The translations under genes were made by a program, and so were the position numbers. The notes under the pieces were generated by a model. That model saw only the letters and a list, made by a program, of their open reading frames with translations. It made no database searches and was not told the DNA's origin. From Anaerolinea sp. (GTDB lineage Bacteria; Chloroflexota; Dehalococcoidia; Tepidiformales; Tepidiformaceae): a stretch of 64,000 nucleotides of DNA. Positions 52 through 58,882 of this stretch are shown here, piece by piece; position 1 is the stretch's first letter; every line of letters starts with the position of its first letter. The stretch covers positions 1 through 64,000 of the forward strand of contig PNKC01000005.1 in NCBI GenBank assembly GCA_013822275.1, given 5' to 3'.

Positions 52-187
52 GCAACGAGCGCCCCCGGCGGTCTCGCCCGGGGCGTTTTGGTGTCCGAAG
101 GCACGCGAATCCGTGCCGCGCCCGCCAAAACAGAGCCCGGAGCGATCAAGCGACGGGTTTGATCCCCGCCACGACGGGTCTGGCCTT

Positions 188-215
188 CATTCCTCATTCC
201 CCATTCCTCATTCCT
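188..215. repeat. Heptanucleotide tandem array (CATTCCT CATTCCC CATTCCT CATTCCT)
   Basis: Four 7-nt units read directly. Confidence 0.9.
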
Positions 216-379: not shown

Positions 380-1537
380 ATGCCGAAACTCTTCACTCAG
401 CCAAATACAGGCGAGACGGTTGGACAACTCTTGATCGATGCGCTGACCGGCGGTCGCTGGCATGGCTTGCTGGCCGCGGTTGCATTTGCCAAGCGTTCCG
501 GCGTGGCGCACATCGAAGCCGCGCTCGAAGCATTCGCCCAGACCAAATCGGTTACGTTGGCGGTCGGTATCGACTTGCGCGGGACCTCAATTGAGGGCCT
601 CGAATCGCTGCGACGAGCCCTGCCTCACAACGGTCAGCTACTTGTCTTCCACAACGAAGCTCCCGCTCCCCATCCAAGTTTCCATCCAAAGCTCTATCTG
701 TTCTTCTCGACGGATGCCGCACTGCTAATCGTTGGTTCGAACAACCTCACCTACGGTGGGTTGTTCACGAACTACGAAGCCTCGGCGGTCTTCGAACTCG
801 ACCTGTCTCACCCGTCCGACGCGATGCTGTTCAAACAGGCGAAGGACATACTCGACGGATGGCTCTCGTCCAAGGTACTCGCGCTGCCCCTCGACGATGA
901 CCTCTTCCTTCAACTGACAAGGGCTGGGCGGATAGTGGCGGAGGCCAACAGTGGCAGCTCAGACCCCGACGATGACGGGAATACAGCGCCTTCTAGCGAG
1001 CTCGCCGAGTCACCGTTTGGCATCGAACCGGTGCGCGGTGCTCCCCGGAGTCGCACGAACAAAGCTGGCGGCGCGCGGCCACCATCATCGACGTCGCGGA
1101 CTGGGGCTCCGATGGTCCATCGGTGGGTGAAACAGTTGCCGGCGACAGATGCACAGCGTCCACCTCAGCCCGGCTCGAACCCCACGGGCAACATCCGCCT
1201 CACGCAGGCGGGTAACCCAATCGACTGGCGCACCTTCTTCCGCGAAGAGATGTTCGGCGCCGCGCCGTGGGCGTCCGAACTCGACCCCAAGGGACATCCG
1301 AAGGAAATCGCGGTCGTTCCGTTCGCCGTGAAGCTGGGCGGAAGCGCCATTCGGACCGTTCCACTCAAACTGGACCACGCACCACACCGAGAGGCAAAAC
1401 AGGGCAACCACGTAACGGTGCTCCACTGGGGAGCCTTGGCCCCTGATCTCGCTGCAAAGGACTACTCTGGCTACTTCCTGGTGCTTGAGAGCGGGCCTTC
1501 AGGCTACAGCCTCGAGCTTCGCGAAACGGCGCCTTAA
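380..1537 (+). CDS. PLD-like (HKD family) nuclease, restriction-enzyme type
   Basis: Motif FHPKLYLFF...GSNNLTYGGLFTNYEA matches the H-x-K...G-S-x-N PLD signature; long C-terminal region. Confidence 0.75.
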   Translation: MPKLFTQPNTGETVGQLLIDALTGGRWHGLLAAVAFAKRSGVAHIEAALEAFAQTKSVTLAVGIDLRGTSIEGLESLRRALPHNGQLLVFHNEAPAPHPSFHPKLYLFFSTDAALLIVGSNNLTYGGLFTNYEASAVFELDLSHPSDAMLFKQAKDILDGWLSSKVLALPLDDDLFLQLTRAGRIVAEANSGSSDPDDDGNTAPSSELAESPFGIEPVRGAPRSRTNKAGGARPPSSTSRTGAPMVHRWVKQLPATDAQRPPQPGSNPTGNIRLTQAGNPIDWRTFFREEMFGAAPWASELDPKGHPKEIAVVPFAVKLGGSAIRTVPLKLDHAPHREAKQGNHVTVLHWGALAPDLAAKDYSGYFLVLESGPSGYSLELRETAP

Positions 1538-3221: not shown

Positions 3222-3320
3222 ACGCGGTGCCAACCGCCCCTCGGACGTAACCCCCGCCCCATGCCACCCTGCCCCCAAATGCCCGCGCAACCGCCCTCTC
3301 ACTCCCCCTTTGGCCGCCGC

Positions 3321-3371
3321 AACGGCGTTAACGTGTTCGAAACGCGTTCAAACGCGTTGAAAACGTGAAAT
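3321..3371. repeat. ~10-bp phased AACGYGTT array A
   Basis: AACGGCGTT / AACGTGTT / AACGCGTTCA / AACGCGTTGA / AACGTGAAAT at ~10-bp spacing. Confidence 0.75.
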
Positions 3372-3466
3372 CGCTCTTGGAGACGCACGTTCGGGGAGGC
3401 GCCCGCCGTCTCACTCCTCGTTCCCCATCCCCGGTGCCTTCCCCCCGAGCGACGCTAGCGCGCGCG

Positions 3467-3513
3467 AACGCGCACACAACGCGCACTAACGCGCGGAAAC
3501 GTGAAATCACTTT
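3467..3513. repeat. ~10-bp phased AACGCGC array B, ending like array A in AACGTGAAATC
   Basis: AACGCGCACAC / AACGCGCACT / AACGCGCGGA / AACGTGAAATCAC. Confidence 0.75.
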
Positions 3514-3620
3514 TCGCGCGCCCACGTTGCCCAACCCCGCAACCACTCGGAAGAGCCTCGGGTCCCGTGTGGTCACCATGTGGATACACGTGTGATGACC
3601 CATGTGGACGCCGTGTGGTC

Positions 3621-3656
3621 GCGTGTGCTTTTGTGCGTTTTCGTCGCACCACACGC
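3621..3656. other. Hairpin GCGTGTG-ctttt-GTGCG-ttttcgt-CGCAC-CACACGC
   Basis: Two stacked complementary stems separated by a 5-nt bulge. Confidence 0.6.
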
Positions 3657-3734: not shown

Positions 3735-4955
3735 CTACGTCACCCCACGCTCCGCGAATCCCGCGATCTCCGCCTCGCTGAAGCCCATCTCCGCGAGGAC
3801 CTCGGCGGTGTGCTCGCCCACCTCCGGGGCGTGGCGCGGGCCAACGGTGGCCAGGCCGTCGATGTTTATCGGGTGGTTGATGACCACCTTCGCGGGCACG
3901 CCGGGGCCGGTCGGCGGGACGACCATTCGGTTGGCGTACAGCTGCTCGTCGTGGAGCAGGTCCTGCATCTCAGCGACCAGCGTCACCGGCACGCCTTCCG
4001 CCCGGAAGATGGCCATCCACTCCTTCGCCGTCTTCTGGCGGAAGGTGGCCTTCAGTTCGGCGATGAGCGGGGCCGCGTTCGCCATCCGGCTTTCGAGGTT
4101 CATGAAGCGCGGGTCGGAAAGCATGTCCAGCCGCCCGGCCGCGACGAACAGCCCGTCGAGCTCCTCCTGGGTGCGGACCATGTAGAGCTGGAGGAGCCGC
4201 TTGTCCGCCGTTTCGAACAAGACACGATTCGGGCTCCTCGGTGGCGCGGAACCGTCATCACGGACCGGGAACTCGGCCTCCACCAGCGCCGCCTGGCCAA
4301 GACACGCGTTCGCCCAGAGCCCATTCGCGAGGAGGCTGGTGTGGACCTTCCCGCCCTTGCCGGTGCGTTCCCGCCGCATCAGGGCGGTGACGATGGCCGC
4401 GTACATGGTGACGGCAGTCGGGTGGTCGCCCATGCCGGGGACGGACATTCCCGGGGTGGCGCCCGGCGCGCGGACCATGTCCATCAGGCCCGTCCGCGCC
4501 CACCAGGCCACGCCGTCGAAGCCCTCGAGCTGAGCATCCGGCCCTTCTTCGCCGTAGGCCGTCAGCGAGGCGTAGATCATCCGCTCGTTCAGCGGCGCAA
4601 GGTCTTCGTAGCGAAGCCCCAGCTTCTCCCTCGTTGGGAACGGCTGGTTCGTGACGTAGACATCACACTCCTTGACGAGCCGGATGAGGATGTGGCGGGC
4701 CTCGGGAGTCTTGAGGTTGAGGGTGATGCTGCGCTTGTTGCGGCCGTCGGTAATCCAACAGTAGTTGACATCCGAGTTCGGGCTCAGCGGCCCGCCGGCG
4801 AGCGCGCGGAAGGGGTCGCCCAGGCCGGGGCTCTCCACCTTGATCACGCTGGCGCCGAAGTCGGCGAGGATGGTGGCGGAAACGGGCCCGGCAATCCAGG
4901 TGCCGACATCGAGCACCTTGAGGCCGGAGAAGATGAGGCCGGAGTCGTCTGTCAT
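3735..4955 (-). CDS. CaiB/BaiF family CoA-transferase (family III)
   Basis: GLKVLDVGTWIAGPVSATILADFGASVIKVESPGLGDPFR...; NKRSITLNLKTPEARHIL. Confidence 0.9.
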   Translation of the reverse strand: MTDDSGLIFSGLKVLDVGTWIAGPVSATILADFGASVIKVESPGLGDPFRALAGGPLSPNSDVNYCWITDGRNKRSITLNLKTPEARHILIRLVKECDVYVTNQPFPTREKLGLRYEDLAPLNERMIYASLTAYGEEGPDAQLEGFDGVAWWARTGLMDMVRAPGATPGMSVPGMGDHPTAVTMYAAIVTALMRRERTGKGGKVHTSLLANGLWANACLGQAALVEAEFPVRDDGSAPPRSPNRVLFETADKRLLQLYMVRTQEELDGLFVAAGRLDMLSDPRFMNLESRMANAAPLIAELKATFRQKTAKEWMAIFRAEGVPVTLVAEMQDLLHDEQLYANRMVVPPTGPGVPAKVVINHPINIDGLATVGPRHAPEVGEHTAEVLAEMGFSEAEIAGFAERGVT

Positions 4956-13795: not shown

Positions 13796-14908
13796 ATGCA
13801 TCCCCTCATCGGCCACGCCGGCATTGCCCGCGAACTGCGCGCCCTCGCGACCAGCAGCGAGCCGCCACACGCGCTCCTCTTCGCGGGCCCGGATGGCACC
13901 GGCCGCACCGCCCTCGCCATCCAGTACGCGATGATGCTCAACTGCGAGCGGAACCGCGCCACCGAGCCACCATCCGCCGGTGCTGCCCTCTTCGACATGG
14001 ACGCGGTCCCGGCCACTCGGGACTCGGGACTCGGGACTCGGGACTCCATCCCCTGCGGCGAGTGCCGCGCCTGCCACCTCATCTCGGAGGGCACACACCC
14101 CGACGTCATCACCGTCTCGCCGGGAGACACGCTCTGCCGCCCGCGCCCCAACGAAAGCAGCCACGAGAAGCACCCCACCTCGCGCGATATCCGCATCTGC
14201 CAGGTGCGCGGGATAATCGATTTGGCCGCCCGCTACCCCTTCGAAGCGAAGTACCGGATGGTGATTGTCGACCCGGCGGAGCGGCTCGCGCGGGAAGCCG
14301 CCCACACGATCCTCAAGACGCTCGAAGAGCCGCCGGGGCACACCGTTTTCGCGCTCATCACGGCCGCGCCGGAGGCGATCATCGAGACGATCATCAGCCG
14401 TTGCCGCCGCATCACGGTGCGGACGGTTCCGCGGGCGGAGATCGAGGCGGGGCTCGTGGCGCGGGGCATCGAACCCACCCTCGCGGCGCGTTCGGCGGAG
14501 GCTGCCCGCGGGAAGCCGGGCGTCGCCATCGGGTTTGCGGCCAAGCCCGACCTGATGGGGGACCGGGAGCGGCTGCTGCAGGTCTGCGCCCTCGTTGCGG
14601 CCGGCCGGACGGCCGAGCGCTTCCGCCACGCCAACGAACTGGCGGAGCAGTGGCGCCGCGACCGCGCAACGGTGCTCAACACCCTGGACATCTGGGAGTC
14701 GTTCTGGGAGGCGCGCCTGGCGGAGTCAGCAGGCGGCGACCCCCAGGATACGCGCGACGCCCTGCGCGCAATCGAAGCCGTCATGCACTGCCGCGCGGAC
14801 CTCCTCGCCCAGGTCCAAACGCGCCCCGCGCTCGAGCTGATGCTGCTGAGTTTCCCGCGGGTTACACTTCCCATAACCGTAGAGGAACCAACCGCAGCTC
14901 ATGCGTGA
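13796..14908 (+). CDS. holB: DNA polymerase III subunit delta'
   Basis: LLFAGPDGTGRTALA, CGECRACHLI zinc module, LAREAAHTILKTLEEPPGHTVFALIT. Confidence 0.85.
   Translation: MHPLIGHAGIARELRALATSSEPPHALLFAGPDGTGRTALAIQYAMMLNCERNRATEPPSAGAALFDMDAVPATRDSGLGTRDSIPCGECRACHLISEGTHPDVITVSPGDTLCRPRPNESSHEKHPTSRDIRICQVRGIIDLAARYPFEAKYRMVIVDPAERLAREAAHTILKTLEEPPGHTVFALITAAPEAIIETIISRCRRITVRTVPRAEIEAGLVARGIEPTLAARSAEAARGKPGVAIGFAAKPDLMGDRERLLQVCALVAAGRTAERFRHANELAEQWRRDRATVLNTLDIWESFWEARLAESAGGDPQDTRDALRAIEAVMHCRADLLAQVQTRPALELMLLSFPRVTLPITVEEPTAAHA
14015..14047. repeat. Heptanucleotide tandem array ACTCGGG x4 plus partial unit, inside holB
   Basis: ACTCGGGACTCGGGACTCGGGACTCGGGACTC, translated as TRDSGLGTRDS. 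Confidence 0.95.
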
Positions 14909-52100: not shown

Positions 52101-52135
52101 GAGTGCTGAGTGCTGAGTTCTGAGTGCTGAGTGTG
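52101..52135. repeat. Heptanucleotide tandem array (GAGTGCT GAGTGCT GAGTTCT GAGTGCT GAGTGTG)
   Basis: Five 7-nt units between the two tail-type genes. Confidence 0.95.
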
Positions 52136-58265: not shown

Positions 58266-58300
58266 GCCTCGTGCCTCGTGCCTCGTGCCGCGTGCCGCGT
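58266..58300. repeat. Heptanucleotide tandem array (GCCTCGT x3, GCCGCGT x2), left of Uma2
   Basis: Five 7-nt units ending at the Uma2 ATG. Confidence 0.95.
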
Positions 58301-58847: not shown

Positions 58848-58882
58848 GCCTCGTGCCTCATGCCTCATGCCTCGCGCCTCGA
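58848..58882. repeat. Heptanucleotide tandem array (GCCTCGT GCCTCAT GCCTCAT GCCTCGC GCCTCGA), right of Uma2
   Basis: Five 7-nt units of the same family as 58266-58300. Confidence 0.95.

What the first reader, a model, noticed from the sequence alone, without database searches (positions are those of the whole stretch)
3321..3515. Two homologous ~10-bp-phased motif arrays after the methyltransferase gene
Array A (AACGGCGTT, AACGTGTT, AACGCGTT, AACGCGTT, AACGTGAAATCGCTCTT) and array B (AACGCGC x3, AACGTGAAATCACTTTT) each place an AACGYG core once per helical turn and end in the same AACGTGAAATCRCT tail. The copies lie 136 bp apart in a non-coding convergent region. This looks like cooperative binding on one DNA face, or a defence-linked regulatory or recognition array.
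Basis: seen in the sequence. Interest (0 to 1): 0.7.

Follow-up and report, generated by a model that had tools for sequence, protein, structure and literature searches.

The report
Dispersed repeat with helix-phased motif array
The two motif arrays are real, but they are two copies of a short DNA element scattered at about 17 places between genes in this bacterium and also found in one related genus; it has nothing special to do with the neighbouring defence-type genes, and its conserved once-per-turn spacing suggests that an unknown protein binds it.

Summary
The arrays exist as described: AACGYG cores 9-11 bp apart in both, tails 136 bp apart. Array B is longer than reported; a G variant extends it to about 3447. 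The defence link fails. The same array occurs at many other places in the genome: 20 pattern hits against 0 in the reversed control, and 9 strong model copies at five loci. None lies beside 16 homologous methyltransferases. The array is the front part of a composite intergenic element: constant core GATTTCACG, then CGCGTT units at 10-11 bp, then in 13 of 13 module copies a G-rich 61-bp module behind it. A related genus (G014) carries six copies with the same order and spacing; none was found in 36 other family genomes or elsewhere among 393 class genomes. In G014 copies, units plus core differ at 2.6% of positions and linkers at 55%, while linker length stays fixed. That argues for constraint on a DNA site read on one face of the helix. 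Best reading: a lineage-restricted dispersed repeat whose array binds a head-to-tail oligomerising protein. The protein is unidentified; regulatory site and mobile-element site remain undecided.

The parts
3319..3377 (-). Array A (A-type copy): core GATTTCACG at 3372-3364, then ACGCG/ACACG units towards lower coordinates, terminal AACGCCGTT ending at 3321
   Evidence: Model R1 match E = 4.9e-13 (the window is among the model's sources, so the match itself is by construction); sequence; one unit shorter than the other A-type copies
3447..3513 (-). Array B (G-type copy): core GATTTCACG at 3508-3500, four GCGCG units, terminal CTAGCGTCGCT
   Evidence: Model R1 match E = 7.9e-20 (also a model source); alignment A1
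3385..3391 (-). Single divergent AACGTGC unit on the other side of core A (counterpart of the AACGCGC units in G014)
   Evidence: Read; inferred correspondence with alignment A2
3227..3288 (-). G-rich 61-bp module that follows arrays throughout this genome; its end lies about 6 bp from the methyltransferase stop codon
   Evidence: Model R3 match E = 9.2e-15 (also a model source); 13 of 13 module copies in the genome have the core/array on the same side
3564..3627 (.). Second, degenerate phased array (TGTGG / CCACA units), part of the composite shared with contig C75
   Evidence: Tandem Repeats Finder 3565-3617; C5-C75 alignment 73% over 352 bp; ACCACA chain in C75
1590..3221 (+). Flanking type II DNA methyltransferase (M.Eco57I-like); not part of the element
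   Evidence: Pfam PF22837 E = 9.2e-36; PADLOC MTase_II E = 3.2e-114
3735..4955 (-). Flanking CaiB/BaiF-type CoA-transferase (family III); not part of the element
   Evidence: Pfam PF02515 E = 4.1e-90

Best explanation
The two arrays are copies of a short, lineage-restricted, dispersed intergenic DNA element. It has a constant AT-rich core (GATTTCACG or TTGATTTTCGCGT), a run of about 3-6 CGCGTT units one helical turn apart, a terminal ACGTGCGTT-like unit, one or two divergent units on the other side of the core, and in this genome usually a G-rich 61-bp module downstream. Shown: dispersal, fixed order, conserved units with unconserved linkers of conserved length. Inferred: the array is a double-stranded protein-binding site, occupied by a protein that assembles head to tail along one face of the helix, nucleated at the core. 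Whether that protein is a host regulator or architectural factor, or a recombination or transposition factor of a mobile element, is not decided.
For: Own genome: 20 triple-unit hits against 0 in the reversed control; 9 copies with E < 1e-12 at five loci plus a weaker third subtype. Module copies found by an independent 16-mer (C84, C153, C29, C4, C15) each turned out to have a core and a short or degraded array upstream; 13 of 13 module copies lie 3' of a core/array. Related genus G014: six copies, same order, spacing 10-10-11-11; similarity between copies stops at the element, about 80-110 bp. Constraint: G014 units plus core 2.6% pairwise difference against 55% in linkers; own genome 10.5% against 55.6%. 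With hexamer columns predicted from the own genome only, 3.7% against 41%, minimum within one base of the predicted frame. Five of six copies folded within about 1.5 sd of shuffles and Rfam gave nothing, so an RNA is unlikely. Precedent for variable-length operators read by head-to-tail wHTH proteins: BldC (PMC5859096) and RdfS (PMC11963761).
Against: No binding protein was identified and no binding data exist. Unit columns were recognised from the same copies, though one G014 test used units defined in the other genome. Apparent constraint would also arise if all copies descend from a few active templates. The linker comparison assumes that copies share ancestry. Patchy distribution (ObgE identity to G000: G014 77%, while G003 78% and G024 79% lack it) is odd for a core host regulator.
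Confidence: 0.55

Rival explanations
1. Non-autonomous mobile element (MITE-like or another class): the array is a recombinase or transposase binding region at one end, the G-rich module marks the other end, and constraint reflects what the enzyme needs.
For: Many copies at non-orthologous sites with similarity ending at the element; two constant end parts about 125-190 bp apart with variable interior; patchy occurrence in two genera; several copies at contig ends, as repeats cause.
Against: No terminal inverted repeats or target-site duplications were seen by eye in the 13 copies (no systematic search); no transposase recognised beside the copies on reading the neighbours (no domain search of them); G014 lacks a recognisable copy of the downstream module.
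Confidence: 0.3
2. Passively amplified intergenic repeat without function, one of several simple repeats in this genome.
For: The genome is rich in 7-bp tandem repeats (31 arrays of three or more in 350 kb, against 3, 0, 1 and 2 in smaller samples of four relatives), and intergenic regions are mosaics of short shared modules.
Against: Units and spacing are conserved while linkers are near saturation; the core and terminal unit are fixed; G014, whose sample has hardly any 7-bp repeats, has the element; no other 10-11-bp arrays in 200 kb each of G022 and G012.
Confidence: 0.12
3. Regulatory or recognition array of the adjacent PLD-like/methyltransferase pair.
For: Adjacency in the window only.
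Against: Copies at about 16 other own loci without such genes recognised; none beside 16 methyltransferase homologues; the methyltransferase's target is unknown and a target site would not need arrays.
Confidence: 0.02
4. Structured non-coding RNA.
For: One G014 copy has a 17-bp perfect inverted repeat (z -4.0).
Against: Other copies fold no better than chance (z -0.5 to -1.5); few compensatory changes; no Rfam match; module folds like shuffles.
Confidence: 0.02

Closest known systems
BldC operators and the BldC family of MerR-like wHTH proteins (PMC5859096)
   Same: Variable-length runs of direct repeats, read head to tail, cooperative; one DNA turn between bound molecules is described for the longer smeA-sffA site (PMC11963761)
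   Different: BldC's consensus is AATT-N4-C with 9-bp sites in promoters; here CGCGTT at 10-11 bp in intergenic repeats, often behind genes; no protein identified
RdfS/Xis-type recombination directionality factor sites (PMC11963761)
   Same: Oligomeric wHTH protein loaded on a 40-bp stretch at an attachment site
   Different: No integrase or attachment site recognised at the copies looked at
REP / REPIN elements (PMC3116915)
   Same: Short, dispersed, extragenic, many copies, lineage-specific
   Different: REPs are palindromic hairpins (PMC3733652 abstract); these are direct-repeat arrays without consistent hairpin
Intergenic heptamer repeats, e.g. TAACTGA repeats of marine Beggiatoaceae (PMC4679880)
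   Same: Direct repeats concentrated between genes in a few lineages
   Different: 7-bp period against one helical turn; no core, terminal unit or downstream module mentioned in what I read (title and start of abstract only)

Membership tests
BldC-type operator | Tandem direct repeats of varying number spaced about one turn | tested here: met
   10-11 bp spacing, 3-6 units
BldC-type operator | AATT-N4-C consensus | tested here: not met
   Units are (A/G)CGCGTT; consensus from PMC5859096
BldC-type operator | Bound by a BldC-family protein | not testable with these tools
   No protein identified; needs pulldown or EMSA
REP / REPIN | Palindrome or hairpin in each copy | tested here: not met
   Five of six folded copies within about 1.5 sd of shuffles
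REP / REPIN | Associated RAYT transposase | not tested
   No search for RAYT was made
MITE | Terminal inverted repeats and target-site duplication | tested here: inconclusive
   None seen by eye in 13 array-module copies; G014 copies have inverted arms around the core; no empty sites available
Structured RNA family (Rfam) | Match to a curated covariance model or covarying structure | tested here: not met
   No match up to E 0.5 in seven own-genome loci; little covariation
Array tied to the restriction-modification pair | Found beside homologous methyltransferase genes | tested here: not met
   0 of 16 homologous loci, within the DNA fetched around them

The most novel reading that the evidence does not exclude
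A previously undescribed dispersed element whose double-stranded, helically phased CGCGTT array nucleates a protein filament at an AT-rich core, serving either as a chromosome-wide regulatory or architectural site or as the assembly site of an unrecognised recombination system.
Probability: 0.3. Interest if true: 0.65.

Novelty: new variant of a known kind. Interest (0 to 1): 0.42.

Why it matters
The best-known short dispersed bacterial repeats (REPs) are palindromes. Here a direct-repeat array keeps its letters and its 10/11-bp phase while the linkers drift, in two genera. That is a clear sequence signature of one-face protein binding, and it makes the search for the binding protein a defined experiment. 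It also warns against reading a spacer array as defence-linked because of one neighbour.

Tried and rejected
The first genome-contig scan gave no answer; the second gave eight hits in unrelated organisms that look like chance. Viral contigs, plasmids and phages gave nothing. Weak R2 hits in G024, G011, G006, G013, G017 and G009 do not show the array on reading and were set aside. RNA structure was tested and dropped. Neighbouring CaiB/BaiF genes (C5, C3, C104; G014 C212) looked enriched, but the genome has 60 such domains, the count is post hoc and the genes compared are paralogues at about 30% identity, so no claim is made. A literature search for phased intergenic repeats returned nothing. 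The unit spacings printed by the regular expression are off for G-type copies, because CGCGCG can be read in two frames; spacings quoted here come from the alignments.

Full report
Observation. Both arrays are present at the stated coordinates. The core AACGYG recurs at 9-11 bp and the tails are 136 bp apart. Seven paired-core matches lie in this one region (one on the opposite strand of array A) against 0.28 expected from shuffles of the window. Array B is longer than described because its last units read GCGCGC and CTAGCGTCGCT instead of AACG.

Not specific to the methyltransferase. The window is contig C5 of a 3.28-Mb draft genome, 77% complete. The triple-unit pattern occurs 20 times in it and never in the reversed control. 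A sequence-only model built from nine copies finds those nine (two each on C5, C85, C75 and C104, one on C3, all E < 1e-12) and weaker ones. The weaker ones include a third subtype, TGATTTTGCGTTnTTAGCGCGTTTAGCGCGTT, on C10, C26, C32, C63, C66, C80 and C127. Five more core/array places were found through the downstream module: C84, C153, C29, C4 and C15, with the array short or broken up by other sequence in C29 and C153. That makes about 17 loci in all. Neighbouring genes are varied. Homologues of the methyltransferase in 16 other genomes of the class have no such array within the fetched loci.

Anatomy. Read from the core, a copy is GATTTCACG, then CACG/CGCG units at 10 or 11, 10, 11 and 10 bp, then a terminal unit such as AACGCCGTT or AGCGTCGCT. 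An A-type (ACGCGTTnnn) and a G-type (GCGCGTTnnn) sit in tandem about 130 bp apart on C5, C75 and C85; on C5 and C75 a TGTGG/CCACA array precedes them. A G-rich module, GCGCGGGCATTTGGGGCAGGGTTGCAC..GAGGGGCGGATGGCAC, lies on the 3' side of the core/array in 13 of 13 module copies, about 125-190 bp from core to module end where a core was located automatically, longer where other sequence lies between. In the window this module ends about 6 bp from the methyltransferase stop codon.

Relatives. Of 38 genomes of the family only G000 and G014 carry the array with significance, and of 393 class genomes again only these two. G014 copies read AACGCGC(1-2)-N-TTGATTTTCGCGT-N4-GCGCGTT-N3-GCGCGTT-N4-GCGCGTG-N4-GCGCGTT..ACGTGCGTT. 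The core, unit, near-identical spacing and terminal unit therefore agree between two genera whose ObgE proteins are 77% identical; G003 (78%) and G024 (79%) lack the array. The flanking genes compared are not orthologous between the two genomes, and similarity between G014 copies stops at the element.

Constraint. Between G014 copies, units and core differ at 2.6% of positions and linkers at 55%; in the own genome 10.5% against 55.6%. When hexamer columns are fixed from the own genome and applied to G014 the result holds (3.7% against 41%), with the minimum within one base of the predicted frame. Linker lengths do not change between the five aligned G014 copies. This is what a double-stranded site read once per turn would look like. 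It is not what slippage or an RNA would leave: single-strand folding of five of six copies is within about 1.5 sd of shuffles, and Rfam has no match.

Mechanism. The best-supported reading is a protein that oligomerises head to tail along the array, nucleated at the AT-rich core. BldC and RdfS show that such binding to variable-length sites exists. Steps shown here: dispersal, order, unit and spacing conservation. Steps inferred: binding, cooperativity, function. I cannot separate a host regulatory or architectural site from the recognition region of a non-autonomous mobile element; no inverted ends or target duplications were seen by eye.

Context. The genome also carries many 7-bp tandem repeats in intergenic DNA that the sampled relatives mostly lack, and several array copies lie close to contig ends, so the draft probably underestimates copy number.

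Noticed in passing
window 187-215, 14015-14046, 52101-52133, 58266-58300, 58848-58881; L108, L116, L029, L104: Many intergenic 7-bp tandem repeats (AATGAGG, GAGGCAT, CCAGCCT, ACTCGGG and others): 31 arrays of three or more in 350 kb of this genome, 0-3 in smaller samples of four relatives.
   Followed up: partly
window 3564-3627; L026 11678-11715: A second phased array (TGTGG/CCACA units at about 10-13 bp) shared by the C5 and C75 composites.
   Followed up: partly
window 380-1537: 385-aa protein with an HPK..SNNLT motif like phospholipase D enzymes (read by eye), upstream of the methyltransferase; no Pfam, PADLOC or PDB match.
   Followed up: partly
G000 contigs C75, C85, C104, C80, C127; G014 C198, C436, C212: Array copies lie within a few hundred bases of contig ends, which may reflect assembly breaks at repeats or strain variation.
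   Followed up: no
L028 1017-2183: AGAGCAAAGAGC-type heptamer repeats run into the predicted start (signal-peptide region) of a gene in contig C63.
   Followed up: no
L099 287-372: The G014 C198 copy has a 17-bp perfect inverted repeat AACGCGCTGGAACGCGC/GCGCGTTCCAGCGCGTT around the AT-rich core.
   Followed up: partly
whole genome G000: 60 CoA-transferase family III (PF02515) domain matches, a large set; three of the five strong array loci are next to such a gene.
   Followed up: partly
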